Assembly: GCA_022457155.1 (NCBI GenBank)
Contig: JAJGOT010000030.1
Location: 2,545,001 to 2,609,000 of the forward strand
DNA from: Cladopsammia gracilis
Taxonomy: Eukaryota > Cnidaria > Anthozoa > Scleractinia > Dendrophylliidae
Length of the DNA: 64,000 bases
Direction of reading: 5' to 3'
In this document: in pieces, positions 7,761 through 29,284 of the stretch
Numbering within the stretch: position 1 is the stretch's first letter
Layout of the letters: every line of letters starts with the position of its first letter
The notes under the pieces: model-generated
The model's database searches: none
What the model was told of the DNA's origin: nothing
What the model saw: the letters and a program-made list of their open reading frames with translations, nothing else
Position numbers and translations under genes: made by a program

Positions 7761-7765
7761 GTACA

Positions 7766-8189
7766 AGTAGATAATAATCACCGGTTCTGGTGCAATCCTC
7801 GGCCCCCCTAATTTTAACGTTAAAATCATTGATTCTTCCTGTTCAATCCCACACAACTCTCCCAACTTTCTTCCCCTTATTTCTCACGTAACATCAATCA
7901 CCCCAAAAACCCCACACGTTTCACTTCTAATTTTTTCCCATGATTTCTCACACAACTTCACTTCTTCTTCTTTCCACACAACTTCCATTCCCTCAATTGT
8001 TCACAAACATTTCAAAGTTCCACTTCCACTCTTCTCCTACAATTCCCCACAATTCTACCAATTGCAACATGTTTCACCAATTGCAACATGTTTTTAATCA
8101 ATTCAAACACGTTTGAATTAGGGGGCCTCGGATCCCACCAGAACCGGTGATTATTATCTACTATTAAGGTGAAAAATCTATTTCAGAAA
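7766..8189. repeat. Polinton left terminal inverted repeat
   Basis: This matches the reverse complement of 35250-35675 along its whole length. The only difference I saw is an A-run of 5 here against 7 in the right copy. Within it, 7766-8162 is itself bounded by a 27-bp inverted repeat (AGTAGATAATAATCACCGG... and its complement ending at 8162). It is non-coding and rich in TTTC/CACAA. Confidence 0.93.
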
Positions 8190-8220
8190 GCGAAGCTAGA
8201 AATCTATTCCTGAAAGAAAA

Positions 8221-8766
8221 ATGTCTGATTCCGAAGAAGAAATCGATTTCATTCCTGAACTCGTTCAGGAAACCCACACAACATGCCATACTCCCAAAAA
8301 TCCCCGACTGGAACATTTCAAAGATATCATCCGAAAAAATCAGGGGAAAAATCAAATTCCACTCAAAGATCTCGAGTTTTATCAAGCACAAATTCTCTCC
8401 CAGATTCCCCGTGGTGAACTCACAAGAAAAAAAGTCAGGGATTTCGCCAAAGCTGCCAAATGGGGAAAGAAAGCAAATGACCACGCTCATGAAATCTTCA
8501 ACCACATAACAGGTCACGACGGAAATGATTATGAACATCTGGAGAAATATCTCATCGACGATTTCAAATATTTTTCCCTAGCATATGACGATCTTCATCT
8601 CAACAGGAAAAAGTTTCTCAATTGCCACCAAGTTCTTTTCGCCCTGTTGCAGAAGAACGGTTTCAATCCCAATGAAGATGATTTCAAACTGCTCAAACTT
8701 TCATCCAGACGGGCGGAACAAGAAAAAATAATCCAAACCATTTTCAAAAAATGTAATTGGAATTAA
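8221..8766 (+). CDS. VLTF3-like late transcription factor homologue
   Basis: This 181-residue protein is the first gene inside the left repeat. The C-terminal two thirds resemble the poxvirus/NCLDV VLTF3-like family (pfam04947). They include a conserved IP...L segment, an ELTRKKVRDFAK helix, an ITG turn and RKKFLNCHQVLFALLQKNGF. The ending LLKLSSRR-x-EQEKIIQ-x-IFKKCNW corresponds to the family's LKSREKL...W end. VLTF3 proteins activate late (virion) genes in large DNA viruses. No zinc ribbon is visible at the N-terminus. The start follows GAAAA. The next ATG lies 1 nt past the stop. The family assignment is by remembered pattern and needs a profile search. Confidence 0.62.
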   Translation: MSDSEEEIDFIPELVQETHTTCHTPKNPRLEHFKDIIRKNQGKNQIPLKDLEFYQAQILSQIPRGELTRKKVRDFAKAAKWGKKANDHAHEIFNHITGHDGNDYEHLEKYLIDDFKYFSLAYDDLHLNRKKFLNCHQVLFALLQKNGFNPNEDDFKLLKLSSRRAEQEKIIQTIFKKCNWN

Positions 8767-8767
8767 A

Positions 8768-9193
8768 ATGGATCCATTTAAAAAAATAATTTACAATGAA
8801 GACGAGCAAAGCGAAGCAAGCGAAGCGAGCGAAGCGAGCCTCAGTGCGAGCGAAGCGAGTGACCATGACGATTGTTTCACATGCTCAGAGGAAGACGAGC
8901 AAAGCGAAGCGAGTGACCATGACGATTGTTTCACATGCTCAGAGGAAGAAACAAGAAGCGTGAATGAGACTCCGACAACATCGGATGATGAATTTATTGT
9001 GTCTGATTCGGAGATGGCGGAAGCTGAGCGAAGCGACGAAATCGAAGACTCAATTGAACTTCTCTTTGAATCATTCGTCAATCTCCAGGAGGAACACAAG
9101 ATTCTCAAAAAGGAACTCCAAAAGCAAAGCGGTCTTCTCTGGGAAATCCACCGGGAAATGAACGAAAGCCAAGCGAAACGAAAGCGATGTTAA
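8768..9193 (+). CDS. Acidic repeat protein with C-terminal coiled coil, unknown function
   Basis: This 141-residue ORF starts in TTAAAATGG, one base after the preceding stop. The N-terminal half is low complexity: SEAS repeats encoded by AGCGAAGCGA units, plus two copies of SDHDDCFTCSEE. The last 45 residues (ELLFESFVNLQEEHKILKKE...) look like an amphipathic coiled coil ending in a basic tail. The sequence shows no known domain. The repeats share the GCGAAGC heptamer found across the Polinton, so part of the protein may be shaped by a DNA-level signal. Confidence 0.6.
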   Translation: MDPFKKIIYNEDEQSEASEASEASLSASEASDHDDCFTCSEEDEQSEASDHDDCFTCSEEETRSVNETPTTSDDEFIVSDSEMAEAERSDEIEDSIELLFESFVNLQEEHKILKKELQKQSGLLWEIHREMNESQAKRKRC

Positions 9194-9537
9194 GCGGTGT
9201 TTTGAAAATAACAGACTTTGTGAATATGAATGTAAAACATTTATATTCTGATGCGCTCACGCAATAAATCGCCAGATGGTATTGCATCATATGTCACATG
9301 TCTACAACGTGCTAGAAGGTGATAAAGGAAATGTCGTATGATTTACCTCAACCAATCAGATGCTTTCATTTTTTATGTATTTTCATGTATTTGTTCATAA
9401 ACTTTCGTTTGTACATGTACTTCTGTTTGTATGTGAAAATACATATATCATTAGGCTACGCTGTGGCCGCATATCATTAAAACTTTTCAATAAACTATTA
9501 ACCGTGTGCTAGTTTTTCCACATCACTCAGTGGAACC
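9194..9537. other. Polinton intergenic stretch with duplicated integrase tail
   Basis: No gene is seen. At 9509-9539 the - strand resembles the last codons of integrase (9897-9926): both encode a VPLSDVEKL end on the - strand. The two + strand sequences share TTTTCCACATC and TCA-TGGAACC. This is a small remnant copy of the chromodomain end, lying just beyond the 106-codon gene. Confidence 0.55.
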
Positions 9538-9858
9538 TTAGCCACTTATTTTTTTGAGATAAGTTCTGAAATGCGCCACATCTTCACATGCTTGTTTATA
9601 TTTTTTGATTGTGAGAAGATTCTCGCATGTTCTTTTGATTTCTTCCAAATAAGATGTCACTGGTTGCCTTTGGAGAATTGAGTTGAAATAATTCATCGTT
9701 GCTGTTTCAATCTCTTTCGTTTTTTCATAATTCTCAGAAAGTTGGTTTTCATCCCCGCGCTGAATCTCATCAGGCTCGCTAAGACCAATATTTCTTAGAA
9801 AATAGTTTTCCTTCCCATCAAATCGATGACTGACATTCATTATTTTAGAAGAAAACAT
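9538..9858 (-). CDS. Small Polinton protein of unknown function
   Basis: This 106-residue protein starts MFSSKIMNVSHRF after TATTTA and lies just downstream of integrase on the same strand. It is charged and mainly helical in appearance (ETATMNYFNSILQRQ, LLTIKKYKQACED), with no signal peptide or membrane segment. I do not recognise the family. It is bracketed by integrase-tail sequence on both sides (9509-9539 and 9897-9926), so it may have been inserted between two copies of the integrase end. Confidence 0.5.
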   Translation of the reverse strand: MFSSKIMNVSHRFDGKENYFLRNIGLSEPDEIQRGDENQLSENYEKTKEIETATMNYFNSILQRQPVTSYLEEIKRTCENLLTIKKYKQACEDVAHFRTYLKKISG

Positions 9859-9889
9859 TAAATAATTGCCATTTCAATGATTGACTTTT

Positions 9890-10987
9890 TTAGCCCAGCT
9901 TTTCCACATCGCTCAATGGAACCCAAGAATTAAATTTGTCAGGGTAACTTTTCCATTTTACAAGCGCGAGTTTTCGCTTATTATCGCGGCGAATAACTTT
10001 TTCAATTCGAAACACATCTTGCGTTGTCTTTTGAAGTTCCGCCTCGTAAAATGATCCAGTGATGTTTTCTCCCAACAGATCAACTAATTTATACGTTACA
10101 GGGTTTGTGTTCTTTATTTCGTCAATCACAAATATCTCCTCTGTCCAATTCGACGTGTAACCTTTGTCAAATATCTTTCGTTTAAACTTTGAAATTCTCA
10201 CCCTATCGCCGACTTTGAATTTTGCTGGGGCATGTTTAGCATAAATTAAATCTCCGAAAAGATTAGCGAAAACCTTTTTCTCATTTTCCTGTTTGCTCGC
10301 CTCTGCGGGACTCATCCGAATGCTCGAATGAAAACGATGATTATATTCATCCAGTAATTTGCCAAGTTTGTCCCAGTATATTGTATTGTTGTTCACGCTA
10401 AACATTTTAAAGAGTTTCTCCTTAAAAGACCTGTTCCAGCGTTCAACAACAGACGATTTCTCTTCATTTTCCGTTGTATACAATTGTATCCCATTTTCAC
10501 CAAGCAAATCCTTCATAGTCCCATTGAAAAATTCAGACCCTTTGTCAGTCCAGAGCATTTTCGGTTTTCGCCCCTTGAATATATCTCGGAAAGCATCAGC
10601 CACTGTTTGACCTCGTTTATCTTTCAGGGGACGAATCCAACCGAATTTTGAGAAAACATCGATCACCATCAGGAGATATCTGATTCCCTTGTTCCACCTC
10701 GAAAATTTTCCCATCTCGACTAGATCAGCCGCCCAGATGTTGTCAATCCCATATGCTATGACTCGCCTCTTTGGAAAGCGCCGCCTGATTGGCCGGTGAA
10801 GTTCATTTGCCAGATTTTGAGCCCACTGGCCTTCACTCAAAATCTTTTCCCGTTTTTTGAAGCGCCGAGCCCAAGTTTCTGTTTTGCTTGAATTGTGTTT
10901 CGCGCCAAAGCATGACCCCACTGTCTTTCTTTCCAGGGAATGGCATCCAAAGCGGCAACCATTTTCCTGTCTGCTTCGTTCTTGCAT
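9890..10987 (-). CDS. INT: Retroviral-type integrase with C-terminal chromodomain
   Basis: The rve core holds D88 (AADLVEM), D148 (WTDKGSEF) and E182 (VVERWNR), numbered from the ATG at 10987. An SH3-like segment (KVGDRVRISK, about 258-267) follows, then a chromodomain (DVFRIEKVIRRDN to WVPLSDVEKL, about 324-364). It would insert the linear element with 6-bp staggered joining. Conserved integrase sequence begins about residue 47, but the ATG at 10987 lies 150 nt inside the PLA2 ORF in another frame, so the first ~45 residues are probably not real. The frame is exactly -1 to PLA2 and opens at the AAAAAAC heptamer (10852-10858) with a stem-loop after it, so expression as a PLA2-integrase frameshift product is likely. 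Confidence 0.95.
   Translation of the reverse strand: MQERSRQENGCRFGCHSLERKTVGSCFGAKHNSSKTETWARRFKKREKILSEGQWAQNLANELHRPIRRRFPKRRVIAYGIDNIWAADLVEMGKFSRWNKGIRYLLMVIDVFSKFGWIRPLKDKRGQTVADAFRDIFKGRKPKMLWTDKGSEFFNGTMKDLLGENGIQLYTTENEEKSSVVERWNRSFKEKLFKMFSVNNNTIYWDKLGKLLDEYNHRFHSSIRMSPAEASKQENEKKVFANLFGDLIYAKHAPAKFKVGDRVRISKFKRKIFDKGYTSNWTEEIFVIDEIKNTNPVTYKLVDLLGENITGSFYEAELQKTTQDVFRIEKVIRRDNKRKLALVKWKSYPDKFNSWVPLSDVEKLG
10812..10858 (-). promoter_or_regulatory. Candidate -1 ribosomal frameshift signal, PLA2 to integrase
   Basis: On the - strand the PLA2 codons TCA AAA AAC contain the in-frame slippery heptamer A AAA AAC (10858-10852). After a 6-nt spacer (GGGAAA) comes a perfect 10-bp stem: AGATTTTGAG (10845-10836), a 14-nt loop, then CTCAAAATCT (10821-10812). 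The 0-frame stop TGA (10837-10839) lies inside the stem. Slipping back one base opens the integrase frame. The order and spacing are those of retroviral gag-pol signals. Confidence 0.75.
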
Positions 10988-11526
10988 TTACGCGGATCCG
11001 CTTTCTTCGCGCAGACTGAATAATCAACATCGTGTTGCATAGCAACTGCATCTGTTTTTCCTGTGGGCTGCTGCCAGATTTCGAGAATCTTACCCTTTTC
11101 ATCAAATCTAACTTGTTTTTCGAGTGGGTTCCAGGGCCCGGTGAAGTTATGGCCTGGGAGGGTGAAACCTTTCTTTGGTCTTGGCAGCTTCCCAATCAGG
11201 GAATGAACATCTAAAGCACCCCCATCTGATCGATCTGTTTTATATTTTCTGTTTGGTCGGATCGCCGTGGACAGCTCATTCATCATATCAGCAGAGGTTT
11301 TGGCAAGAAATGGTTTCATCTTGTCCAACGCAAAATCCAATGCTTTCTTTTGAGTGTTTTTATTTCGCAATAATTCACTGGCTCCATAACGACCCATTTC
11401 AACTGTCTTTTTTCCCAACCAAGGCAGCGCATGCGCAACGCCAGTCAGCGCAAGTTCACCAATGCCAGCTCCGCTTCGCTCCGCGGCTCGCTTCGCTTCG
11501 CCCCCACCTTGTGAGGGCAGATTCAG
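10837..11526 (-). CDS. Phospholipase A2-like virion protein segment (-1 frame of the DUF5679 ORF)
   Basis: A basic/helical region (about 11500-11180) is followed by a PLA2-like domain. That domain has a calcium-loop-like PGHNFTGPWNPL (about 11155-11120) and the catalytic His-Asp pair in AMQHDVDYSVC (His codon 11034-11032). Parvovirus-type PLA2 domains breach endosomal membranes, and adintoviruses are known to carry such a domain. The frame is open upstream to 11664 but without a natural start. That upstream part is the out-of-frame reading of the DUF5679-like gene. The segment joins it in the -1 frame at GGGAAAC (11526-11532). It ends KNGKRF at 10837. Its last codons contain the second slippery site. 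Confidence 0.72.
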   Translation of the reverse strand: MNLPSQGGGEAKRAAERSGAGIGELALTGVAHALPWLGKKTVEMGRYGASELLRNKNTQKKALDFALDKMKPFLAKTSADMMNELSTAIRPNRKYKTDRSDGGALDVHSLIGKLPRPKKGFTLPGHNFTGPWNPLEKQVRFDEKGKILEIWQQPTGKTDAVAMQHDVDYSVCAKKADPRKCKNEADRKMVAALDAIPWKERQWGHALARNTIQAKQKLGLGASKNGKRF

Positions 11527-11532
11527 TTTCCC
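11501..11532 (-). promoter_or_regulatory. Candidate -1 ribosomal frameshift signal, DUF5679 to PLA2
   Basis: In the DUF5679-like frame the codons are TCG GGA AAC TGA, giving the canonical slippery heptamer G GGA AAC (11532-11526) directly before the stop. After an 8-nt spacer (TGAATCTG) lies a 7-bp stem: CCCTCAC (11517-11511), loop AAG, GTGGGGG (11507-11501), with one T-G pair. A -1 slip continues into the PLA2 frame. Confidence 0.68.
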
Positions 11533-11675
11533 GAATTTTTCACAAATCTTGTTTTTTTGATTCCGCAGGAAGCGCAATGGCAAAACCACATTTTCCTCCC
11601 ATTTTTTGCAGTCATGTATCCAGACGGTTCCACGCATCCCGTCCTGCGTTTCTCCTTCACGCAATATGATTCCAT
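11523..11675 (-). CDS. DUF5679-like zinc-ribbon ORF (50 codons)
   Basis: The ATG at 11675 lies 2 nt after the protease stop. The product begins MESYCVKEKRR and continues with KNGRKMWFCHCASCG and KKTRFVKNSG. This is the pattern of DUF5679 (YCVK...knGr...C..CG...Rf) with a weakened first Cys pair. The frame stops at TGA immediately after GGGAAAC. From memory of related cnidarian Polinton proteins, this domain is normally the N-terminus of a DUF5679-PLA2 protein. The stop here is therefore either read through by -1 frameshifting or is a mutation. Confidence 0.66.
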   Translation of the reverse strand: MESYCVKEKRRTGCVEPSGYMTAKNGRKMWFCHCASCGIKKTRFVKNSGN

Positions 11676-11677
11676 TT

Positions 11678-12226
11678 TCAATCGAAATATTCTTTTATGA
11701 ATTTCTCATTCTTTCCTGGGTCACTCAATGAAAAAACCTTCAACGTGTCATAGAAGGATTTTCGTCGAATCTCATTCAAGAAATATAAGCAATAATATCC
11801 ACATCGGACAGATTCCAAAGCTTGAATTGGATGCCCATAATTGTAAATTATTTCTTTCCCAATTTTATCTGCATATTTTACCAATTCAATTGGAGGTGAT
11901 ATTGAGAATGAATCAAAGTAATAGACAATATGTGTCTTGATGAATGTGGCAACCCAGTGCGTTCCATTCCCAATAGAATCATCTAGATTAATTATGCAGG
12001 AACCAGTTTTATGTAAATGATCTTTTGAATCTCTTGAAAAGATTCCTTTGAAATTGGGAATTTTAAGAAACCTCACCCACTCAAGAATATCAAAGTTTGA
12101 AATCGGAATATCTTTCCAAGCTGGCCTCAAAGGATGGCCCCTACTAGCGGTATGTTTTGAAAGGGACTGTTTGGCCCCAGCAGAAGCCCCGATCCAGATT
12201 TTTTTTTTCGCCCACGACCTTCCCAT
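11678..12226 (-). CDS. PRO: Adenain-like cysteine protease
   Basis: The 182-codon frame contains the adenovirus protease signature: His90 (GNGTHWVA), Asp105 (YYFDSF), Gln135 (HPIQAL) and Cys142 (VRCGYYC). The N-terminal family start is around PISNFDILEWV (residue 41 on). It would mature the capsid proteins, as in adenoviruses. The ATG at 12226 lies inside the previous gene, so residues 1-35 overlap it out of frame and look unnatural. The frame is -1 to that gene across an A10 run (12199-12208). The protein may therefore start at the ATG, at a non-AUG codon, or by frameshift. It ends 2 nt before the DUF5679-like start. Confidence 0.9.
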   Translation of the reverse strand: MGRSWAKKKIWIGASAGAKQSLSKHTASRGHPLRPAWKDIPISNFDILEWVRFLKIPNFKGIFSRDSKDHLHKTGSCIINLDDSIGNGTHWVATFIKTHIVYYFDSFSISPPIELVKYADKIGKEIIYNYGHPIQALESVRCGYYCLYFLNEIRRKSFYDTLKVFSLSDPGKNEKFIKEYFD

Positions 12227-12999
12227 GTTCCAAAAAATGGCGGCGGCATATAAGGATACAGTCCCGGTTTTGGACTTACCATCAATCCTTTGCCTTTGCC
12301 TTTGCCTTTTCTGGGTACTTGAAGCCCCGATCCGAATAATTTCGAAGCAAGCTCAATAGCCATTGGGATTCCTATAGCGGCAAGTGTTCCCAATAACCCA
12401 CCTTGAATCTGTCTCTGCGTTGGTTTCAACGTAATTCCACTTCCGCTTTGAATTCCTTTTCCCACCAAGTTTCTCTGGCCTTTTGTCAAGAGGTCTCCAA
12501 GGGAAGCGAGTTTTGATAAGAATACTGCGGGAACTTCAATGCCTTTCTCAATCAACTTCATAATGAAGGACAACGGATCTCCTGGCACTCCTTCTCCTTT
12601 CAGTCGAGGTCGCTGCGCTCCTTTTCCAAATATTTTATCAATCCCCAAGCTCCCCAAGGCACTCAACGCTCCAGTCGCAAGATGCGGGGCAACTTTTGAA
12701 ACCCCTTTTGTTGCAAATGGAAGCAGCTTCGATCCCAGGGAAATCAACGAAGTCCAAAGACTCCCACCCACAACTTTTCTGATTTGTGTTTTAGAGATTG
12801 ACAATTCAACTCCCCGCCCCAAACTGATGGCTTTTTGAACTTTACTTATTTGAGTCTTTGTCAGCAACAGTTCATCTGGCCCTTTCAATTCATTTCGCGA
12901 AAGTCTCAATGTTATGGAAGAGTTATTTTTCACAGCTTTTGCAAGCTTTGTTTTTTGCCCATCTGATAATTTCACACCATATGGAATATACGACGTCAT
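12127..12999 (-). CDS. Basic/hydrophobic virion core protein (pVI/pX-like)
   Basis: This 290-residue protein starts MTSYIPYGVKLSDGQKTKL. The N-terminal third has repeated LTKTQISKV / ISKTQIRKV helices. The middle has glycine-rich hydrophobic stretches (LWTSLISLGSKLLPFATKG, GGLLGTLAAIGIPMAIELASKLFG) and the C-terminus has KGKGKGKG and GRKKKSGSG. This mix of basic and membrane-active segments is typical of adenovirus-like core or membrane-lytic proteins of Polintons. The assignment is to a class, not a proven family. The C-terminus overlaps the protease frame by 100 nt. Confidence 0.68.
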   Translation of the reverse strand: MTSYIPYGVKLSDGQKTKLAKAVKNNSSITLRLSRNELKGPDELLLTKTQISKVQKAISLGRGVELSISKTQIRKVVGGSLWTSLISLGSKLLPFATKGVSKVAPHLATGALSALGSLGIDKIFGKGAQRPRLKGEGVPGDPLSFIMKLIEKGIEVPAVFLSKLASLGDLLTKGQRNLVGKGIQSGSGITLKPTQRQIQGGLLGTLAAIGIPMAIELASKLFGSGLQVPRKGKGKGKGLMVSPKPGLYPYMPPPFFGTWEGRGRKKKSGSGLLLGPNSPFQNIPLVGAIL

Positions 13000-13028
13000 T
13001 TCAATATTTTGAATATCGAAATAAGTTT

Positions 13029-14333
13029 TCAGGCCTTGACCAGAAGTTTGTTTGATGCTGTATACAGCTCAATTTCTTTTTCATGCAACACCAAGGCGTT
13101 CAATGTGTACTGTGTTGGGTTGGCGCCACTCAATTCGTATCGGAAAGTCAGAGACACAACTCCATCTTTCACATCATCTTCTTGGTTTCGGAGATCGAAG
13201 TAAAGCATGCCGAAGAGGTTTTTGAAATTTGCTCGGGTAATCAATGGCCCGCTTAAAACGTCATTATAAGCGGAATTGAATGCCATCAAAGCTCGATAAA
13301 GCCTAGTTTCCTCATCCGTTGTCATTTCCAATTGAGGGTAATAAATTGAGTTGTTCAACTCCAGTTGGGCTCGACTGAAGTGCCGGTTGTTTGCTCCAAT
13401 GCCGAATGTCGTGAATTTGAAGATATCATGTGTCTGGCTATTGTAAGATGCTGTTGGAACAACCCAAATCAACACATGTCGCGGCCTTCGAAGCCCCGTG
13501 GAAATGCGAAAGTAGCTATTCACAGCTGCTGTTTGTGTTATTTCATGGTGTTCTTTCAAATATGTCCACTTTTTCGGTTTCAGATAATCTTCAAGATATT
13601 GTTTCAAGCCTTTTCCGTTGAAAATGATTTTGGGGCACCACAATCTGAGTTTAGTGAGAATTACTTTGGAATCTGGAGCAGCTCCTTTTCTGAAAATCAA
13701 GTTGTTGTCATTTTCAAGTTCCAACAGAAGAGTTGTCTTTATATTTGGGTGAAGGTTATTTTTGAAAGCAGCGAAATAACTGTATAAATTCAGGGGAATT
13801 GATATTTTGTTGATATTCGCCGCATCAGTCAGGATCTTTCGTCTGGCAAAACCCTCATTATAAAGTGCTTCTGCTGGCCGTGCTTCTGTTGTTCCCGTTG
13901 ATGTATCAGGATAGAAGAACTGATCTTGCCCAACCGAATCGGCATAGGTTTTCGTGTATTTCAAGAGCGTTAATGCATTTGCCGATTCATTTGCTCTTGA
14001 GTTGTTATAGATGGTTTGCCCATTGCATTCTACTTTGATTGATTTTATGAACGTCAGGCCATTCGTTGTCGTGCAATCCTGATTACCGTTATTTGGCCCC
14101 GCGGTTATTCCAGTTGCACTGTCAGCCGTTGTAACAAGCTTAAAGTCAACCTCCAGATATGCATTATACCAATCAATCGGATTGGCTTCTGAGGAATTAT
14201 CCACGTTGAAGTGATAATTATCTTTTGTCTGCCGATTGTTATTCGCGACATTGTCATTGAGTGGTGTTTCGAGATCATAATATGTATATTCGTATCTTTT
14301 TACGAATTCCGGGTTTCTAAAATTCACTGCCAT
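13029..14333 (-). CDS. MCP: Major capsid protein (double jelly roll)
   Basis: The ATG at 14333 (MAVNFRNPEFVKRYEYTYYD) was chosen because an upstream in-frame ATG at 14378 would overlap the previous gene. The product has 434 residues, in the usual range for Polinton major capsid proteins. It has their beta-rich character, with segments such as YNAYLEVDFKLV, GLTFIKSIKVECNGQTIYN and the late MLYFDLRNQEDDVKDGVVSLTFRYEL. Double-jelly-roll trimers build an icosahedral shell. It is the third of three capsid-module genes on this strand, 22 nt from its neighbour. Confidence 0.85.
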   Translation of the reverse strand: MAVNFRNPEFVKRYEYTYYDLETPLNDNVANNNRQTKDNYHFNVDNSSEANPIDWYNAYLEVDFKLVTTADSATGITAGPNNGNQDCTTTNGLTFIKSIKVECNGQTIYNNSRANESANALTLLKYTKTYADSVGQDQFFYPDTSTGTTEARPAEALYNEGFARRKILTDAANINKISIPLNLYSYFAAFKNNLHPNIKTTLLLELENDNNLIFRKGAAPDSKVILTKLRLWCPKIIFNGKGLKQYLEDYLKPKKWTYLKEHHEITQTAAVNSYFRISTGLRRPRHVLIWVVPTASYNSQTHDIFKFTTFGIGANNRHFSRAQLELNNSIYYPQLEMTTDEETRLYRALMAFNSAYNDVLSGPLITRANFKNLFGMLYFDLRNQEDDVKDGVVSLTFRYELSGANPTQYTLNALVLHEKEIELYTASNKLLVKA

Positions 14334-14355
14334 TTTGTTAGATAGTTTTTTCTTT

Positions 14356-14742
14356 TCAGAGGAGGCCCTTATAAACATCTTTCACATATTGAAATTTATC
14401 AGTGTCTTCTTGGAAGCGGACTTTCTTCAGTATTTCCCCAATTTCTTTTCCTTTTGTTTCCGGGGGCGCTGGCACTGAGGCTCCCTCCGGTCGCTTCGCT
14501 TCACTCACTTCACTCGCTTTCTTTGTTGTAAATTTATCATAAATTTTTTCACCAATGAGTTGTCCAGTCTTTTCTCCAACTTTCTCTGCTCCTTTTTCAA
14601 CTAATTTTTCTGCTGCCTTTGAAGCTAATTTTGAAGCTGTTTTTCCTGTTAATTTAGCTGCGAGTTTTGAGAAAACATCAGAAAAACCACCTCCATATCT
14701 TATTTCACCTGTATCAGGATCTCTTTCTCTTCTTTCATCCAT
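14356..14742 (-). CDS. Ala/Lys-rich helical virion protein, pVI-like
   Basis: This 128-residue protein begins MDERRERDPDTGEIRYGGGF. A long amphipathic region (KLAAKLTGKTASKLASKAAEKL...) follows, then a charged C-terminus containing EILKKVRFQEDTDKF. The start overlaps the penton gene stop by 8 nt. Position between penton and major capsid genes, a GGGF start and a helical lytic-looking region suggest an adenovirus pVI-type cement or membrane-active protein. This is an inference from context and composition. Confidence 0.55.
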   Translation of the reverse strand: MDERRERDPDTGEIRYGGGFSDVFSKLAAKLTGKTASKLASKAAEKLVEKGAEKVGEKTGQLIGEKIYDKFTTKKASEVSEAKRPEGASVPAPPETKGKEIGEILKKVRFQEDTDKFQYVKDVYKGLL

Positions 14743-15505
14743 TTTTAATTACCACAGTCAAAGAAATATCAATATCATTCAAATCAACTTCTCGGTCTTC
14801 ATCATCAGTAATGTAGAAGGTGACCTCAGAAATATGCGGGGAGTTTATTTTATTCCACAAGTAATTTATTGGTTGAATTTCGAATGGCAATGATCTGGTT
14901 TTAGTGTTGGTTGAGAACGTGTAAAGCGCATTTGACCTTTTCCCGGAGACAATTGAATCGCTCAAAAGACTGCATCTGAGATAGAGATTGTCAACACTGT
15001 TTGATATATTTGGAAAATTCGTTCCATAAGCACTAGCTGTCAGTTTAGCCGCATCAAATCCCACCAAGATGTGAAAGTTTCCACTGTTTGCAAAATCAAT
15101 TTGAAAGTTCTCTTGAAGTTGAATGAAAACTTTGAAAGTGGTCAAATCAAACAACACATTGATTCCATAACTATCACCTGTGGAGGTCGCTTCGCTCCTT
15201 TTCCCAATGCTTTTGTGAATGAATTCGTTGATGTCTTCATAGTCATAAATTCCCGCAGGAAAGGTGATTGTTTCCCATGTCTTGCCCTTGTCTTTGGAAA
15301 TCACCAACTTGTTGTTGCGGTATTTAGGCTTGATATTATGCCAGCTTGCCGTCATGGAAAGATGATCCAAAGCCAGCCAGTGCGGTTTATTCTCTTCCAG
15401 CTGCAACTCTGGAGAAAACCTCGTTGTGAAATTCCCTGGTTTATTTTGTGGGTTTTGTTTTCTTGCATCAATTGATTTAAAGACAAGTACTCGATTTACA
15501 TCCAT
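14735..15505 (-). CDS. Penton-like minor capsid protein (single jelly roll)
   Basis: This 256-residue protein begins MDVNRVLVFKSIDARKQNPQ and ends ...LNDIDISLTVVIKNG. It is beta-rich, with PHWLALDHLSMTASWHNI, FPAGIYDYEDINEFIHKSIG and a late ITDDEDREVDLNDIDISLTVVI strand region, as in Polinton/adintovirus penton proteins. It would form the five-fold vertices. The ATG overlaps the upstream stop as TAATG, so the two genes are tightly linked. Confidence 0.78.
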   Translation of the reverse strand: MDVNRVLVFKSIDARKQNPQNKPGNFTTRFSPELQLEENKPHWLALDHLSMTASWHNIKPKYRNNKLVISKDKGKTWETITFPAGIYDYEDINEFIHKSIGKRSEATSTGDSYGINVLFDLTTFKVFIQLQENFQIDFANSGNFHILVGFDAAKLTASAYGTNFPNISNSVDNLYLRCSLLSDSIVSGKRSNALYTFSTNTKTRSLPFEIQPINYLWNKINSPHISEVTFYITDDEDREVDLNDIDISLTVVIKNG

Positions 15506-16644
15506 TATTTTAAATACTTCTGATAAAGTTTTTCATGCATTGTTCTATCGATTGCTCCAATTCTCAAGAGTTCATCATTTATTTGGGAAAGATCATTCCT
15601 CAAGACATGCGAATTGTTGCCAGCAGCCATTGAGCCAATCAAAATTTTCATCCGATCTGCCAGCTCTTCTGGCTTTTGATAGAAGACAACGCTGGATCCC
15701 ACCATCCTTGATTTACCTGAGGATTTGTGAGGTGGCATATTTGACAGTGTGTTCAAATCGTTGAAAATCCTCACGGCATTCAAGGAATAGTTCTTTTTCG
15801 GGTTGAATCTTTTTGTTAGCAGGTCGATGAGTGATTTGTCTGCATCAGCCTGATAGATCAATTTACCACCTCGGAAGGCATTCAGTTTCATTTCATTGAA
15901 AAGTTTGGGGACATCGATGAGAAGCCCACCATAGTGGTCTTTTTGAATCTTGAAGGCATTTCTGCGAGGTTGTTTGTATTTTCGAATGCCTTCCCCATGT
16001 TTTGGTTGTGTGTAGTATTTTCGCAAAGATATGATGTCATTAATTGTGCTTGCATAACTTGATAATGTCTTTTGCTCTCTTTTATAAGATTCAATGTCAG
16101 ATAAACCTTTTGGTGTGTCTTTTTGTTTGCTCCTCTTTACTCCACTTATTTTATTCGAAATAATTTTAACAGTTGCCTGAGCACTCTCTTTGAGCTTGTT
16201 TAGCTCTTGAGTTTTCATAGCCATCAGGTCATTAGGCTTGGGAAGATGATAATTATTTAAAATAATTTTATCATCTTTATCAAACCTATTTTCTACAGCT
16301 GCAATGGAAATACCAGTGTCTTTTTCATCCGGCGGGCCCGAAAGTTGCGGAAGCTCGGTAGACAGCGTAATAATATCTCTGTTCGTTTCTACCAAGTCTT
16401 TGAAGCCATCAGTCAAAGCAAGTTGATTTTGCCGGAGTTGCTCAATCACTGCATCTTGTTTTGCATCTGTCTTCTTTTGTTGCTCCAGCAGGGGTTCTCT
16501 GAGAGTCTTGAAATAATCACTCATGACAACATCCCGCCCTTTTTCTCGGTCTTTCATTTCATTTTTCACTTCTGTGACGGCTTTCGCGATTTGATATCCC
16601 TGCTGTTCACGTTCGGCAAACTTCTTTATTCTTTCAAGATCCAT
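15505..16644 (-). CDS. Coiled-coil Polinton structural protein, function unknown
   Basis: The ATG at 16644 in TTAAAATGG was chosen. An in-frame ATG 10 codons upstream would enter the promoter shared with the ATPase. The N-terminal third is charged and helical (ERIKKFAEREQQGYQIAKAV, LLEQQKKTDAKQDAVIEQL). A conserved-looking central block follows (YYTQPKHGEGIRKYKQPRR, YGGLLIDVPKLFNEMKLNAF), then an SSVVFYQKPEELADRMKILI segment. I recall similar proteins beside the capsid genes of other animal Polintons, but no function is known. It heads the - strand capsid operon-like block. Confidence 0.65.
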   Translation of the reverse strand: MDLERIKKFAEREQQGYQIAKAVTEVKNEMKDREKGRDVVMSDYFKTLREPLLEQQKKTDAKQDAVIEQLRQNQLALTDGFKDLVETNRDIITLSTELPQLSGPPDEKDTGISIAAVENRFDKDDKIILNNYHLPKPNDLMAMKTQELNKLKESAQATVKIISNKISGVKRSKQKDTPKGLSDIESYKREQKTLSSYASTINDIISLRKYYTQPKHGEGIRKYKQPRRNAFKIQKDHYGGLLIDVPKLFNEMKLNAFRGGKLIYQADADKSLIDLLTKRFNPKKNYSLNAVRIFNDLNTLSNMPPHKSSGKSRMVGSSVVFYQKPEELADRMKILIGSMAAGNNSHVLRNDLSQINDELLRIGAIDRTMHEKLYQKYLK

Positions 16645-16703
16645 TTTAAGTGACAAAACAACATTTATCTCCAAAGATAAATGTTATCTCAACACTTAAA
16701 ATG
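16642..16703. promoter_or_regulatory. Symmetrical divergent promoter between capsid block and ATPase
   Basis: The two start codons sit in mirror-image sequences: CATTTTAAGTG (16642-16652) and CACTTAAAATG (16693-16703). Between them is a second inverted repeat, AACATTTATCT-CCAA-AGATAAATGTT (16660-16685). Both genes therefore begin in TTAAAATG. This looks like a compact two-way viral promoter. Confidence 0.6.
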
Positions 16704-17339
16704 AAGATTCCAAATTATGATCGAAACGCGAGCGGAGCGAAGCCAGACCGAAAATATTGTGATTTCCTTGATGAAGATTTCCGAATGCTCATTGCGGGTC
16801 AAACCCGTTGTGGAAAAACAAACACTTTGATGCACATGTTGCGAAAACCTCTCGTCTTCTATGATAAAATTTATTTCTACTCTCCCAATCAACATCAAGA
16901 CAAAATCGTTGATCTACAAAAGTTGATGGAAGGTGTCAGCCAAAAAGTCGGATATCCAGTTCTCGAAATTCTGGGGCCAGATGACATCATGAATACCTCA
17001 GATTATCCAAGCAACAATCGGAAAGTCGTCGTGTTTGATGACCTCATGAACTCATCCGATCGAATTCAAAAACAAATCGCAAATCATTGGACAGATGGAA
17101 GGCATCACGGAATCAGTCCAATTTATCTTTCCCAGTCCTATTATGATGTTCTACAAAAGATTCGTTTGAATTGTTCACACATGCTGCTTTATCCACCAGC
17201 AACAAAAACTCACCTCGATCTCATTGCAAAAGAGAATTTGATTGACCCCCATCTTTTCAACAAACTTGGACCCTTCGAATTCCTTTTCCTTGACAAAGAA
17301 AAGAAAAGTGTTGCCAAAAATTTTGATGAAACCTTTTAA
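16701..17339 (+). CDS. ATPase: FtsK/HerA-type genome-packaging ATPase (A32-like)
   Basis: The start at 16701 (MKIPNYDRNASG) in CTTAAAATGA was preferred to an in-frame ATG at 16650. From this start, the Walker A is GQTRCGKT (33-40), the Walker B is VVVFDD (109-114) and a sensor-like SQSYYDV follows at about 144. The 212-residue length is normal for Polinton packaging ATPases, which pump DNA into preformed capsids. It ends 1 nt before the next start and shares a mirror promoter with the - strand capsid block. Confidence 0.92.
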   Translation: MKIPNYDRNASGAKPDRKYCDFLDEDFRMLIAGQTRCGKTNTLMHMLRKPLVFYDKIYFYSPNQHQDKIVDLQKLMEGVSQKVGYPVLEILGPDDIMNTSDYPSNNRKVVVFDDLMNSSDRIQKQIANHWTDGRHHGISPIYLSQSYYDVLQKIRLNCSHMLLYPPATKTHLDLIAKENLIDPHLFNKLGPFEFLFLDKEKKSVAKNFDETF

Positions 17340-17340
17340 A

Positions 17341-19134
17341 ATGGGCATATTCAACAATGTAGGACGATACACCGGTGTTGACATGAGGGAATACATGAAA
17401 AATTTCAACAAACAAGTTCAACAAGGTGGTTTGAAATTAGACACCAACAATAATTATGATATCCAACAAAAACGACTGGTTAATGTTGCCGAAGGAGTTG
17501 ACAATGATGACGCAATCACAAAGCACCAAGTTGACACGCTTGCAACGCAATTGCGAGCAGATTCTCTCCAGGTGGATGGGTCTTCCCATATGACTGGGGA
17601 TCTTGATCTCAGGGGACAAAAACTCATCAACCCCGGGGAAATAGAAATGAATCGCAAATTGATCGTCAATCTGGACACTGATGAAAACCAGGATTTGTCA
17701 GCGGTGAATATGGTCACTCTGAAAAAATTCCACCCTGATGTATCAACTCATGAAGTCACGAAGGACCTGGATTTGAAAGGGCTTTTCAACGTGAAAAACT
17801 CAAAACAACAAACATGGCATGATTTGGGAGCGCATTATAACAACCTGGTTTCTTATAATGACACCAAAAATATCTTTCTCAGCCGCAAAGAGACGTTTCC
17901 AATGGAGACGGCTTTGGATATGGGAAATCACACCATTTTTAACGTGAAAGATCCCGAAGTTGCCGATCAGGGCGCAAATATGCGATATGTGGATGCCCAA
18001 TCCGCGAAAAAGCTTTCGTTGGAAGGTGGAACAATGACCGGAAACCTGGATATGAACTCACAACAAATCAACAATATTGCAACGCCAACTCTGAAGCATC
18101 AACCCACGTCAAAATCTTATGTGGACGGCAAGATAGGAGGTGTGGTAGCCCACACGATGGAATTAGAAGAGAAACTTAAAGAATATGTCAATGAATCGCA
18201 TATCACGTCAACCTCTCACCCGAAGGACGCATTCCGCTATCTGATGGAAGATGTGGATGAATCCAGCTCTGAACATCATATGACAGTGACTGGGATAAGT
18301 GATTTTCCAGATTCACCGCATCATTTCAACAAGAAGGCCTATGACTTGGAAATCACAAAAGATCTTTTAAATGAATACTCTGGGAGACTTGGATTCAATA
18401 TGTTCAAACTCCCAGAGGGAGAATACACCGTGTGCGTGGAATTCTTCCCCGCGACAATGGATGGCGTGAGCGTCAACGTTGTGAGCGCCAGTCTGAATGT
18501 CAATCAGCAATCAACTAAGAAGTTTTCGGGGTATTCCAGATCCATCATCCACATGCACAAATGGAAGATCACTCCACCTGAATTTATTTTCCTGGATTTG
18601 AAATGGCGAGGCACTGCCGAGTCCGCTGAAAAAGGAAATGCAAATCTGATCATATATGGCATTGCTGGTTCCCAACCTGATGTTGCAAGCAGCGTCTTCG
18701 ATTTCCCTTTTGTTTTCGAAGCAGGGAAGATGGTTATGGAGACTGACTTGGATTTGAATGGCCACAACTTGTCTGGGAGCCGAATTGTGGAAACCGGCGT
18801 CTTTCGAAAAAATGATGATAGCAATAAATTTTTGTTTATTGGCAGCACCTCGAGGTTTCTTTTCTTCCCAATGAAAACAAAACTGGTGGAAGTGGGGTTA
18901 TTTCATGCCTCAATAACGAACGTCCCAAAGATTGATCTGACTTTCTCCATGTCAGTGAATAACCGTAAATTTGAAAGAACCTGGACTGGAAGTAGAAGCA
19001 GAAGCCAGAAATTTCATATTGGGGATGGAATTGAAATCCCAAGCATGACTAATTTTTCTTTTTCCCCTCAAGATGACCTGGTGATCGGGTTGCATGAGGC
19101 AGTTTATCTTTCGCTGGTTTTTGAAACAAGATAA
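17341..19134 (+). CDS. Fibre-like protein with phage-tail-type repeats
   Basis: The start at 17341 in TTTTAAAATGGG was chosen; 33 further codons are open upstream but overlap the ATPase. The product has 597 residues. The N-terminal half has repeats of the type MTGDLDLRGQKLINP, LDMGNHTIFNVKDP and GGTMTGNLDMNSQQINNIAT...SKSYVDGK. These closely resemble trimeric phage tail-fibre and spike shafts. The C-terminal half is beta-rich and more variable. It is a candidate virion spike or attachment protein. The shaft likeness is clear; the role is inferred. Confidence 0.68.
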   Translation: MGIFNNVGRYTGVDMREYMKNFNKQVQQGGLKLDTNNNYDIQQKRLVNVAEGVDNDDAITKHQVDTLATQLRADSLQVDGSSHMTGDLDLRGQKLINPGEIEMNRKLIVNLDTDENQDLSAVNMVTLKKFHPDVSTHEVTKDLDLKGLFNVKNSKQQTWHDLGAHYNNLVSYNDTKNIFLSRKETFPMETALDMGNHTIFNVKDPEVADQGANMRYVDAQSAKKLSLEGGTMTGNLDMNSQQINNIATPTLKHQPTSKSYVDGKIGGVVAHTMELEEKLKEYVNESHITSTSHPKDAFRYLMEDVDESSSEHHMTVTGISDFPDSPHHFNKKAYDLEITKDLLNEYSGRLGFNMFKLPEGEYTVCVEFFPATMDGVSVNVVSASLNVNQQSTKKFSGYSRSIIHMHKWKITPPEFIFLDLKWRGTAESAEKGNANLIIYGIAGSQPDVASSVFDFPFVFEAGKMVMETDLDLNGHNLSGSRIVETGVFRKNDDSNKFLFIGSTSRFLFFPMKTKLVEVGLFHASITNVPKIDLTFSMSVNNRKFERTWTGSRSRSQKFHIGDGIEIPSMTNFSFSPQDDLVIGLHEAVYLSLVFETR

Positions 19135-19168
19135 GCATGATTGAAAAAATGATTTCTCCCTGAAAAAA

Positions 19169-19657
19169 ATGGGACGAAAACAAAACATTTTTACTTTCAA
19201 TCACATCAACCCCACAATTCGGGAAGAAGAACTGGAAGAGATCAAAAAACTTTTTCGATTTTATCACAAAAGATTTTGGTGTTTGAAACGAGCGCATGGT
19301 CGATTCAAGAAAATGAATCTGCTCATGAATTTGACCTCTTCCGGTCTGGTTGCAATCGGGACGATTGCTGGAGCCGCGACTTTGAACCCAATCGTGTTGG
19401 GAGTGATTTCAGGAGCAGGATTAGTTTTGAAAACCGCGAATGAAATGAAGAATCTGAAAAGCAAAATTAAGATGGCGAAATTCGCTTTCACCACCTATGA
19501 AAAAACATTGAGTGATTTGCGCTTCGCTTTGCGGGGAGGAAAATTCGACAGGGATGAATTTTTGTTTTCAATGGAAGCGATTGATGGGATTGTGATTGAT
19601 TTGGGGTTGGATTTGGAAAAGTTTGAAGCTGAATGGGAGAAAAAATTTGAGGGTTGA
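19169..19657 (+). CDS. Small membrane protein of unknown function
   Basis: This 162-residue protein starts MGRKQNIFTFNHINPTIREE. A charged helical N-terminus is followed by a hydrophobic, Gly/Ala-rich stretch (SSGLVAIGTIAGAATLNPIVLGVISGAGLVL, about 52-82 by count), long enough for two membrane passes. A charged C-terminal helix region follows. No signal peptide is seen. It follows the fibre-like gene on the same strand, so a virion-membrane or lytic role is possible, but I do not recognise the family. Confidence 0.6.
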   Translation: MGRKQNIFTFNHINPTIREEELEEIKKLFRFYHKRFWCLKRAHGRFKKMNLLMNLTSSGLVAIGTIAGAATLNPIVLGVISGAGLVLKTANEMKNLKSKIKMAKFAFTTYEKTLSDLRFALRGGKFDRDEFLFSMEAIDGIVIDLGLDLEKFEAEWEKKFEG

Positions 19658-19742
19658 GTGAGCGAAGCGAGCCGGGAGTGAGCGAAGCGACTGAAGGGAG
19701 CCGTTGCGAGCCGGGAGTGATTCAACTCCAAATGGAGTGAAA
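19658..19742. repeat. GAGCGAAGCGA repeat cluster between genes
   Basis: Two copies of GTGAGCGAAGCGA and a diverged third lie between convergent genes, interleaved with GCCGGGAGTG. They match the GCGAAGC heptamers scattered through the Polinton. Confidence 0.6.
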
Positions 19743-20001
19743 TCACACATTCCCAAGCGGACCAAAATCTGGTTCCATAATCATTTCAACAACTTCTGCT
19801 GCTGAGAAATCTTCTTCAAAATCATTTCCATCAAAATCAAAAAAAATCTAAAAGTTCCCCAAGAAAATCTTCTGGGTGATGACCTGATTTTTCGAGTTCA
19901 AGTAAAATTTTTATTGCAAAATCGTCATTAAAATTGAGATTCATCAATTCTATAATATAATCACTGTCTTCCATCATTCTTTCGAAATCTTCTGCTTCCA
20001 T
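19743..20001 (-). pseudogene. Small acidic protein gene with an apparent T8 frameshift
   Basis: The start at 20001 (MEAEDFERMMEDSDYIIELM) is followed by 54 codons ending GELLDFF then TGA at 19837. The sequence after it stays protein-like in another frame (DFDGNDFEEDF, AAEVVEMIMEPDFGPLGNV) up to a stop at 19743. The switch point is a run of eight T (+ strand A8, 19829-19836); a run of seven would keep one frame. It may be a mutation, a sequencing error or a +1 slip. The product is very acidic, family unknown, and divergent from the gene at 20047. Confidence 0.6.
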
Positions 20002-20046
20002 TTTTAAATAAGAAAAAAAATTATTTTTTTTTTTACTCCATATAAA

Positions 20047-20676
20047 ATGGAGTTGAAGGAATTGAAAACGAACCAAATCACAACCGAAGAACCGCAAATG
20101 AAAAAAACAATACAACCATTTGTTGAAATCCCTCTCCGGTTCAAAGAAAGACCAATCACTCTCAAACTTGAGAAATGCGTCTTTAAAATTCATAAGAATG
20201 AAAACGGATTTTCATTGGGAATCAATCTAGATCAATCACCCCCTGAAATCAAAGAAAAGATGAAAGAGATAGAGGGGCAGATCAGAAAGCTTGCAATGGA
20301 GAATAAGTCAAAAGTTGTTAGACAAAATTGGAGATTCGGAAATTTTTCAGAAACAGATTTCAACCTGATTAAAACGGATCGAAGCGAGATGGAAAAAGTT
20401 TGGGGAAAGTTGTGGTTGACTCAAAAAGGAAACATCAGCGTTCCATTCTCGAAATTTGGTGAAGGAGAAGTTGGGCAAAGAAAATCCATTCGGTTTGACC
20501 CGCATGATCACATTGGAGAAAAACTAACAGGGCATGTGATCTTTCGAATTTCTCGCATCTTTTGTGGAAACTGTCAATCCATTTCATGTTCAATCAATTC
20601 AGTTTTTGTAACAAAATTCAATGGAAACGTTTCAGCGTTTGATAACTTTGAAGATACTGAGGAGGTAGACTGGTAA
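20047..20676 (+). CDS. Polinton protein of unknown function, possibly DNA-binding
   Basis: This 209-residue protein starts MELKELKTNQITTEEPQMKK in TATAAAATGG. A beta-rich middle (PITLKLEKCVFKIHKNENGF) and late segments (GNISVPFSKFGEG, HVIFRISRIFCGNCQSISCSINSVFVTKF) alternate with charged helices. The general look recalls viral single-stranded DNA-binding proteins, but no diagnostic motif is visible, so this is a weak guess. It is the last + strand gene before the inserted transposon. Confidence 0.55.
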   Translation: MELKELKTNQITTEEPQMKKTIQPFVEIPLRFKERPITLKLEKCVFKIHKNENGFSLGINLDQSPPEIKEKMKEIEGQIRKLAMENKSKVVRQNWRFGNFSETDFNLIKTDRSEMEKVWGKLWLTQKGNISVPFSKFGEGEVGQRKSIRFDPHDHIGEKLTGHVIFRISRIFCGNCQSISCSINSVFVTKFNGNVSAFDNFEDTEEVDW

Positions 20677-20783
20677 ATGAAGTGAATGAAGACTTGTAAG
20701 TTTTTTCATTTCTTTGAAATGAAAAAAAAAAACGTTTTCAATGAGGTTAATTTTTTACCTTGATTTTTTTTCCCCTCTGATTT

Positions 20784-20921
20784 TCACTCAATTTTTTCAA
20801 TGAAGAAAACAAATTCAGGAGATTTCCATGTGATAAAGTGAGTGATTTCCTCAGAATCAAGGAAATGAGTTTTCTTCTTGAGGATTTGATTGATAAAAAC
20901 TTGGCTTGAAATTTTAAACTT
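20784..20921 (-). pseudogene. 3' part of the HTH-like Polinton gene, cut off by the transposon
   Basis: These 45 codons and a stop continue, in frame, the - strand gene that begins at 31052, once the transposon and one copy of its 2-bp target duplication are left out. The peptide FINQILKKKTHFLDSEEITH is protein-like and ends at a TGA (20784-20786). The gene is broken by the 9.9-kb insertion. Confidence 0.65.
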
Positions 20922-20949
20922 TTCTACTCAAGCAGTTTAAGGCCTAGGT

Positions 20950-23900: not shown

Positions 23901-24248
23901 TTTTAGGGTTCAAAAAGTCTGGTCAGCTTAAGCCACATCCCTGATTTTGAGTGAAATGTTTACGGTTTTTATGTTTTATGGTATGCTAATCTATTTTACA
24001 GCTGTATCCCAATTTACATGTAGATGCTTAATTATTGTTTCTGCATAATAGGCCTTTCTTACGGCATAATTTGCCCTGAAAATGCCGCATAATAAATTGG
24101 TTATTTTTTTTTACACCCTACATGTATCAGAAGCCCTGTTTATTTCACTCTTTTGATGTGTCTGATGTACATGTATGTGATGACATTTTTATACAATAGT
24201 ATTTGTCCATGTAAATACAGTAACTGTTGAAAACAGGGATAAAACATG
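20950..24248. other. Left non-coding part of the transposon
   Basis: No convincing gene is present. A short possible first exon starts at ATGGCGGCG (21013) and a possible 56-nt exon lies at 23168-23223 between TATCCAG and GTAAGC (encoding EEKQFDRTALFQSSKMLK). These could belong to a + strand passenger transcript, but no full frame links them. TACATGTA palindromes are frequent here. Confidence 0.35.
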
Positions 24249-24871
24249 TCACAGATGAATTGAAATTTTCCATGACTCAAGCAATTTCAGTGCCACTTTC
24301 CTTCTGTGTATTATGTCTGTTGCTTCCTTGGATGTTGTGTAGTCAGTCGAATTTGGAACCCGCTCATGCTGCATGAGAAAGGATGTATCCCATTCTTTAA
24401 GATCAACATTCAGTTGCTTGATGGCTTTTAAAACAAGAACTTGTATTTTTGTCAGCTGGTTTTCATACCTGTTGATACAGTATCGTGATTTTGGATTACG
24501 AGCAAGGCTAGTACGCAGTTTGTCAAGCTGTATAACATCAGGTATTTTTCCAAGCACAATCTCTGTCGCTCTTGCTGTTTTGGAGGACAACTGTTGCTCA
24601 CTTTCATCATTACAGATATTTTGCTCTGGAAGCTGTTTCTCTGGCTCACACAGTAGCTGATCTTGCTCTTGAATACATTCTGTGTGGTGCTCTTCAGGCT
24701 CTTTACTCCCTATCTGGTTTACATGTAGTTCTTGGTCACTTGCCTTCCCTGTATCATCATGCTCGACTTGATCATCATAAATGTCATCCCCTTGTATTGC
24801 TTCTCCAAAAATCACTGCAATGACTTCATTGTCATCACCATCAGTACTGCCAGTGTCTTCACAAGGTGTTT
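24249..24871 (-). CDS. Transposon gene, exon 4 (C-terminus)
   Basis: The acceptor CTTTTTTTCTAAG precedes AAACACCTTGTG. The phase joins exon 3 (CAA TAC G | AA ACA). About 207 codons are present. An acidic stretch rich in D, E and Q comes first, with Cys/His (EEHHTECIQEQDQLLCEPEK). A helical region follows (TEIVLGKIPDVIQLDKLRTSLARNP, LTKIQVLVLKAIKQLNVDLKEW), and the protein ends LESWKISIHL. No known domain is recognised. Confidence 0.65.
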
Positions 24872-29150: not shown

Positions 29151-29284
29151 CCTGTTAATTAAAAGAAATTTTTTAATTAATACTGTTAATTAATTTATTA
29201 ATTAATTAATGCTGTAAGTATAAAACAACTTCATTTGTTATTAATTTTCAAAAGCTGTTTAAAATTTCATTTAGAAAAACTTAC

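What the first reader, a model, noticed from the sequence alone, without database searches (positions are those of the whole stretch)
10812..10858. Polinton integrase appears to be made by -1 ribosomal frameshifting from the PLA2 ORF
Seen directly: an in-frame A AAA AAC heptamer, a 6-nt spacer, a perfect 10-bp stem with a 14-nt loop, a 0-frame stop inside the stem, and the integrase frame exactly -1. Conserved integrase sequence starts just after the heptamer, and no sensible start codon exists for it. Known: this layout is that of retroviral gag-pol signals. I know of no report of it in Polintons.
Basis: partly seen in the sequence, partly recalled or inferred. Interest (0 to 1): 0.92.

Follow-up and report, generated by a model that had tools for sequence, protein, structure and literature searches.

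The report
Polinton integrase by double ribosomal frameshift
A virus-like DNA transposon in an animal-size genome appears to make its integrase as the tail of a three-part protein that forms only when ribosomes slip back one base at two successive sites, a trick known from some retroviruses.

Summary
The window holds a 27.9-kb Polinton (7766-35675). At 10858-10852 (- strand) an in-frame A AAA AAC, 6-nt spacer and 10-bp stem lie where the PLA2 frame hands over to the integrase (INT) frame, exactly -1. A second signal lies upstream at 11532-11526: a DUF5679 ORF ends G GGA AAC UGA, a hairpin follows, and PLA2 is exactly -1 of it. Among related copies in the same genome, 75 of 78 PLA2/INT junctions keep a slippery heptamer; the other 3 are single-frame fusions, one of them DUF-PLA2-INT. 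Site 1 is kept in 67 of 69 copies, with a stop codon directly after it in 66 of 67. Stems change sequence but mostly keep pairing, variable sites change frame across site 2, and 30 of 75 copies have no INT-frame AUG that could serve. Best reading: tandem -1 frameshifting makes DUF5679, DUF5679-PLA2 and DUF5679-PLA2-INT, like betaretroviral gag-pro-pol. Limits: one host genome, no expression data; one lineage's site 2 stem is not beyond chance. The literature searches and passages I saw hold no such report; the nearest is a suggestion of slippery sites in adintovirus Penton and Hexon-Adenain.

The parts
7766..35675 (.). Polinton element with inverted ends; target-site duplication GGTACA at 7760-7765 and 35676-35681
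   Evidence: Inverted arms 285 nt at 100% and 157 nt at 97%; flanks read; PolB, rve+chromo, A32-like ATPase, DJR capsid by Pfam
11526..11675 (-). DUF5679 ORF, 50 codons from ATG 11675, first frame of the cassette; stop TGA 11525-11523
   Evidence: PF18930 E 2.8e-6, 27.8 bits against cut-off 27; frames
11526..11532 (-). Shift site 1: G GGA AAC followed at once by UGA
11499..11519 (-). Hairpin of site 1: TGCCCTCAC / AAG / GTGGGGGCG, 6 nt after the heptamer
10837..11532 (-). PLA2 frame (Phospholip_A2_4), -1 of DUF5679, from shift site 1 to its stop
   Evidence: PF08398 E 3.7e-8; open from site 1 to site 2
10852..10858 (-). Shift site 2: A AAA AAC
10812..10845 (-). Stem of site 2: AGATTTTGAG / 14 nt / CTCAAAATCT, 6 nt after the heptamer; PLA2 stop 10839-10837 inside the 5' arm
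9890..10852 (-). Integrase frame after the shift (320 codons plus stop): rve core and chromodomain
   Evidence: PF00665 E 1.8e-10, PF00385 E 1.5e-6
10985..10987 (-). ATG in the INT frame, the rival start; not kept in L072, L080 or in the other lineages

Best explanation
The Polinton expresses three proteins from one AUG by two successive -1 programmed ribosomal frameshifts. Ribosomes start at the DUF5679 ORF. Most stop at the UGA directly after G GGA AAC. Some slip -1 there, helped by the hairpin 6 nt downstream, and make DUF5679-PLA2. A further fraction slips -1 at A AAA AAC before the second stem and makes DUF5679-PLA2-integrase. From the window coordinates the products would be 50, 279 and 595 aa. 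Shown here: anatomy, frames, conservation among copies, covariation at site 1, change of constrained frame across site 2, absence of a usable INT AUG in 30 of 75 copies. Inferred: slippage itself, its efficiency, the order of events, and that the ratio keeps integrase scarce and tied to a PLA2 protein of virion type.
For: Site 2: slippery heptamer in 75 of 78 junctions, 69 AAAAAAC and 6 GGGAAAC. Site 1: 67 of 69, GGGAAAC 59, GGAAAAC 6, TTTAAAC 2, stop directly after in 66 of 67. PLA2 open and in phase between the sites in 61 of 65. Site 1 stem: 24 distinct arm pairs, 92% of cells paired, 28 double-change cells, 0 of 5000 shuffles reach either. Site 2 stems: 35 of 38 distinct sequences beat all their background positions; 11 of 13 are reached by only 0-27 of 2000 synonymous re-codings. 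Variable sites peak at PLA2 third positions up to the heptamer and at INT third positions beyond +52. No INT-frame AUG upstream or before the first catalytic Asp in 30 of 75. L089 carries DUF5679, PLA2 and INT in one frame.
Against: No expression or assay data. All copies come from one genome, are related and recombine, so counts are not independent events (39 distinct site 2 60-mers; four INT lineages). The number of further pair types does not exceed shuffles at site 1 (847 of 5000) or site 2 (776 of 5000), and double changes at site 2 are reached by 54 of 5000. L058/L061/L064 site 2 stem: 280 and 350 of 2000 re-codings reach it. L083 site 1: 72 of 2000. Window fold z -0.47. The window lineage has AUGs in the PLA2 and INT frames upstream of the sites. 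L081 has no recognisable DUF5679 ORF. The frame signal is unclear at +7..+52 and softer at site 1.
Confidence: 0.88

Rival explanations
1. INT (and PLA2) start at their own AUGs inside the preceding gene (INT at 10987, PLA2 at an AUG upstream of or some codons after site 1), by leaky scanning, reinitiation or separate transcripts; the heptamers are incidental.
For: ATG 10987 opens the INT frame of the window; 36 of 75 copies have an INT-frame ATG upstream and 10 of 75 one just downstream of the heptamer. 31 of 67 have a PLA2-frame ATG upstream of site 1, and the first one downstream lies 25-45 codons on in 58 of 67.
Against: 30 of 75 have no usable INT AUG. INT third positions are not the variable ones upstream of the heptamer, as expected if INT were untranslated there. 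It does not explain the kept heptamers, stops and stems.
Confidence: 0.05
2. The frame change happens in the RNA: the polymerase slips on the A run at site 2, or editing removes or adds bases.
For: Site 2 is a run of six A in 69 of 75.
Against: Site 1 (GGGAAAC, UUUAAAC) and six site 2 copies (GGGAAAC) are not single-base runs. Stems at fixed spacing downstream fit ribosomes; this last point is recalled knowledge.
Confidence: 0.04
3. Splicing joins the frames across the junctions.
For: Polinton transcripts of this host were not seen, so an intron is not excluded by data.
Against: PLA2-frame constraint runs up to the heptamer and INT conservation begins at it, which leaves little room for an intron; no splice-site scan was made.
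Confidence: 0.02
4. Decay or assembly error: a broken frame in a dead copy.
For: Some copies do decay (stop in L014; phase breaks in L086, L087, L094), and homopolymers are error-prone.
Against: The same two handovers recur in four INT lineages at 54-76% identity.
Confidence: 0.01

Closest known systems
Betaretroviral gag-pro-pol (M-PMV)
   Same: Two successive -1 shifts, integrase in the last and rarest product (M-PMV's two shifts: passage read in PMC12817477; integrase as part of pol and the heptamers used there are recalled).
   Different: DNA transposon with PolB; first products DUF5679 and PLA2, not Gag and Pro; no RT in the 14 element ORFs scanned.
Adintovirus slippery sites proposed in PMC11071296 (passages read)
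   Same: Same broad group of elements; -1 slippery sequences proposed by a program (KnotInFrame).
   Different: There Penton C-termini and Hexon-Adenain, offered as a hypothesis; the passages name neither PLA2-INT nor a tandem arrangement.
Insect Mavericks with PLA2-type CAP protein and INT, PMC5803895 (passages read)
   Same: INT with chromodomain and a parvovirus-like PLA2 protein in one element.
   Different: CAP and INT are listed as separate ORFs in the passages read; the two 'frameshift' passages there concern errantivirus mutations.

Membership tests
-1 programmed ribosomal frameshift signal | Slippery heptamer X XXY YYZ in the upstream frame | tested here: met
   Site 2 in 75 of 78. 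Site 1 in 67 of 69, of which 6 are G GAA AAC, not strictly XXX YYY Z; its use in Visna virus is recalled
-1 programmed ribosomal frameshift signal | Downstream ORF in the -1 frame, upstream stop shortly after the heptamer | tested here: met
   Site 1: stop directly after in 66 of 67; site 2: 3-39 nt after in 75 of 75
-1 programmed ribosomal frameshift signal | Stem or pseudoknot about 5-9 nt downstream, kept by compensatory change | tested here: met
   not met beyond chance for L058/L061 at site 2, weak for L083 at site 1
-1 programmed ribosomal frameshift signal | Measured frameshifting | not testable with these tools
   No expression data at hand
Polinton/Maverick | Terminal inverted repeats and 6-bp target-site duplication | tested here: met
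Polinton/Maverick | PolB, rve integrase, packaging ATPase, DJR capsid | tested here: met
   PF03175, PF00665, PF04665, PF21738 over cut-off
Polinton/Maverick | Adenovirus-type protease | tested here: inconclusive
   PF00770 E 0.03, below cut-off
Betaretroviral gag-pro-pol | Two tandem -1 shift signals in one cassette | tested here: met
   Both sites in 65 loci, PLA2 open and in phase between them in 61
Betaretroviral gag-pro-pol | Gag, retroviral protease and reverse transcriptase encoded across the sites | tested here: not met
   DUF5679, PLA2 and INT instead; RT hits lie outside the element. It works like one; it is not a member

The most novel reading that the evidence does not exclude
The double shift is a Gag-Pol-like packaging device in a DNA virus: DUF5679 and PLA2 are virion components, and the rare DUF5679-PLA2-INT protein carries integrase into the particle, so that the incoming linear DNA arrives with its integrase. 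This would be convergent with retroviruses, or a trait inherited together with the shared integrase.
Probability: 0.4. Interest if true: 0.93.

Novelty: new variant of a known kind. Interest (0 to 1): 0.87.

Why it matters
How Polintons express their integrase, and whether they make infectious particles, are open questions. If the signals work, integrase level is set by recoding, the integrase of such copies has no start codon of its own, and the fusion names a concrete route for integrase into virions. A tandem -1 layout outside retroviruses also bears on whether this expression strategy came with the shared integrase or arose twice. Short reporters can test it directly.

Tried and rejected
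Own start codon for INT: rejected as a general account. Chance: not excluded by the heptamer of the window copy alone, excluded by the set. A pseudoknot at site 2 of the window (loop TGAAG with downstream CTTCA) was seen by eye; L019 and L027 differ there, so it is not claimed. Relatives in viral contigs: none confirmed. A genome-wide count by DNA pattern did not complete. A third slippery site at 15514 has an ATG right behind it and was left aside. L031, L033, L034, L035 (PLA2 without INT nearby) were read in part by eye for an upstream DUF5679 ORF; none was seen.

Print: searches of an open-access library, and word searches inside ten papers on or near the subject (PMC11071296, PMC12567637, PMC5803895, PMC8097293, PMC10120064, PMC12721341, PMC4028283, PMC3671162, PMC4642659, PMC11071308). 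I saw listings and passages, no whole text. Of the 41 papers holding 'polinton' and 'frameshift' 30 were listed and 6 of those opened. Two papers looked up by DOI, which from recall are the adintovirus and the first Polinton papers, are not held. So 'not reported' means: not in these searches.

Full report
THE ELEMENT. It holds a 27.9-kb element at 7766-35675 with inverted ends and a GGTACA duplication. Its ORFs match PolB, integrase core plus chromodomain, poxvirus-A32-like ATPase and double-jelly-roll capsid over the Pfam cut-offs, and an adenain-like protease only below cut-off. It is a Polinton/Maverick.

THE OBSERVATION. On the - strand the PLA2 frame reads GCT TCA AAA AAC GGG AAA AGA TTT TGA, and the integrase frame is exactly -1. 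Heptamer 10858-10852, spacer 6 nt, arms 10845-10836 and 10821-10812, stop inside the 5' arm: all as reported. One point was missed: the INT-frame ORF opens with an ATG at 10987, 43 codons before the heptamer.

RELATED COPIES. 94 loci were used. L001-L030 are the best 30 of 112 scored INT matches (of 4853 first-look candidates). L031-L060 are the best 30 of 150 scored PLA2 matches (of 2120). L061-L080 were picked by me from the rest, very long open frames included on purpose. L081-L094 are 12 places picked from the 150 plus the upstream stretches of L070 and L076. L031-L035 have no INT nearby and were dropped before the counts. Of the other 89, the INT N-terminus was found in 78. The remaining 11 are L066, L067, L069, L074, L075, L077, L078, L079 (PLA2, no INT in the stretch), L068 (junction deleted) and the upstream-only L090 and L091. 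Many copies are near-identical: 39 distinct 60-nt site 2 sequences, 28 distinct site 1 34-mers counting the dropped L089, and four INT lineages at 80% identity among the 64 loci with 180 aa or more, 54-76% identical between lineages in the representatives compared.

SITE 2 (PLA2 to INT). 75 of 78 carry a slippery heptamer in the right frame: AAAAAAC in 69, GGGAAAC in 6. The PLA2 stop follows 3 to 39 nt after it. The 3 without are L062, L065 and L089, where PLA2 and INT share one frame. The window lineage has an 11-bp A/U-rich stem with a 9-12-nt loop. The L036 and L070 types have a different, 10-14-bp G/C-rich stem, GCCGCCGAGTAAA with TTTACTCGGCGGC in its commonest form, 7 nt from the heptamer, enclosing 46-72 nt; L041, L042, L076 and L093 change one C-G to U-A on both sides. 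L058, L061 and L064 have only 7 bp, 10 nt from the heptamer. 35 of 38 distinct sequences beat every background position in their own INT gene; those three do not. Against synonymous re-coding, 11 of 13 tested sequences are reached in 0-27 of 2000 trials, L058 and L061 in 280 and 350. Column shuffles for the G/C-rich stem (11 distinct pairs of arms): percent paired reached by 2 of 5000, 5 double-change cells by 54 of 5000, pair types by 776 of 5000. The covariation case at site 2 is therefore modest; its strength is that unrelated stem sequences sit at the same place.

A 50-codon DUF5679 ORF (Pfam just over cut-off) starts at 11675 and ends TCG GGA AAC TGA; PLA2 is exactly -1. 69 loci hold this stretch. 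67 have the DUF5679 C-terminal motif and a slippery heptamer: GGGAAAC 59, GGAAAAC 6, TTTAAAC 2 (in L087 the ORF is broken further up). L081 shows no DUF5679 motif. L089 is a single-frame DUF-PLA2-INT ORF; its row (TTTAAAA) is a chance match and was dropped. The stop codon follows the heptamer directly in 66 of 67; in L083 it lies 27 nt on. A hairpin lies 5-8 nt downstream in the rows, shorter (4-5 bp) in L082, L084 and L086. For 24 distinct arm pairs of fixed geometry (L058, L089 and L090 left out) 92% of cells pair and 28 cells change on both sides; 0 of 5000 shuffles reach either, though pair types are reached by 847. Synonymous re-coding reaches the observed helix in 0-38 of 2000 for 9 of 10 tested and in 72 for L083; L091 was too short to test. 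36 of 67 have no PLA2-frame ATG upstream of the heptamer in the same open stretch. The first one downstream lies 25-45 codons on in 58 of 67, so an internal PLA2 start is not excluded by start codons alone.

FRAME OF CONSTRAINT. Over 63 copies (L073, with a 1-nt deletion, and short stretches left out), variable sites peak at PLA2 third codon positions up to the heptamer (-45..0: 24 changes in 15 columns, against 10 in 15 for INT third positions) and at INT third positions beyond +52 (20 against 10 in 15 columns at +52..+97, more sharply further on). At +7..+52, where the frames overlap and the stem begins, there is no clear preference (15 against 14). If INT were translated through the upstream overlap, its codons would be constrained there too. 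At site 1 the same test points the same way but less sharply.

START CODONS. INT-frame ATG upstream of the heptamer in 36 of 75, between heptamer and first catalytic Asp in 10 of 75 (L088 has both), neither in 30 of 75. For 4 loci in which the Asp motif was not found, the first 45 codons were used. Both sites together occur in 65 loci, with PLA2 open and in phase between them in 61; L014, L086, L087 and L094 are broken.

MECHANISM. The simplest account is two -1 programmed frameshifts in tandem, giving DUF5679, DUF5679-PLA2 and DUF5679-PLA2-INT (50, 279 and 595 aa by arithmetic from the window coordinates). Slippage itself is inferred. L089, with all three domains in one frame, is what a constitutive form would look like and suggests that they can live in one protein.

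KNOWN OR NEW. M-PMV uses two shifts for gag-pro-pol (passage in PMC12817477). PMC11071296 suggests slippery sites in adintovirus Penton ORFs and a Hexon-Adenain fusion (passages). A PLA2-like CAP protein beside INT is known in insect Mavericks (passages in PMC5803895). In the searches named under Tried and rejected I found no report of frameshift-made Polinton integrase or of a tandem signal in a DNA transposon; two likely key papers are not held.

LIMITS. One host genome, no expression data, related and recombining copies, and no genome-wide count.

Noticed in passing
window 15505-15532 (- strand): ORF 16683-15505 ends T TTA AAA TAA at 15514 and overlaps ORF 15532-14735, which is in its -1 frame. 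A third shift site is possible, but an ATG of the second frame lies right there; the search for copies did not complete.
   Followed up: partly
L062, L065, L089; L073: Natural single-frame fusions: PLA2-INT in L062 and L065, DUF5679-PLA2-INT in L089. In L073 a 1-nt deletion puts part of PLA2 in the INT frame.
   Followed up: partly
window about 11467-11500 and 8849-8949; L028, L029, L080: Short GCGAAGCGA-rich inserts that keep the reading frame sit at different places of the coding genes and are present in some copies and absent in others (for example absent in L014 and L019 at the window's place).
   Followed up: no
L066, L067, L069, L074, L075, L077, L078, L079; also L034, L035: Another PLA2 group ends KKRLKL or KKRFKL and stops, without slippery heptamer and without INT in the stretch fetched: a natural contrast group.
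   Followed up: partly
window 8200-8766 (+): Poxvirus late transcription factor VLTF3-like ORF next to the left end of the Polinton (PF04947, E 1.9e-18).
   Followed up: no
window 57258-60331 (+); related RT ORF at 50169-51575: Reverse transcriptase ORF followed by a tyrosine-recombinase ORF, as in DIRS-like retroelements (the DIRS label is recalled).
   Followed up: no
genome G000: Heavy Polinton load: 112 INT matches at 94-100% identity were scored out of 4853 first-look candidates, so the true number is a lower bound.
   Followed up: no
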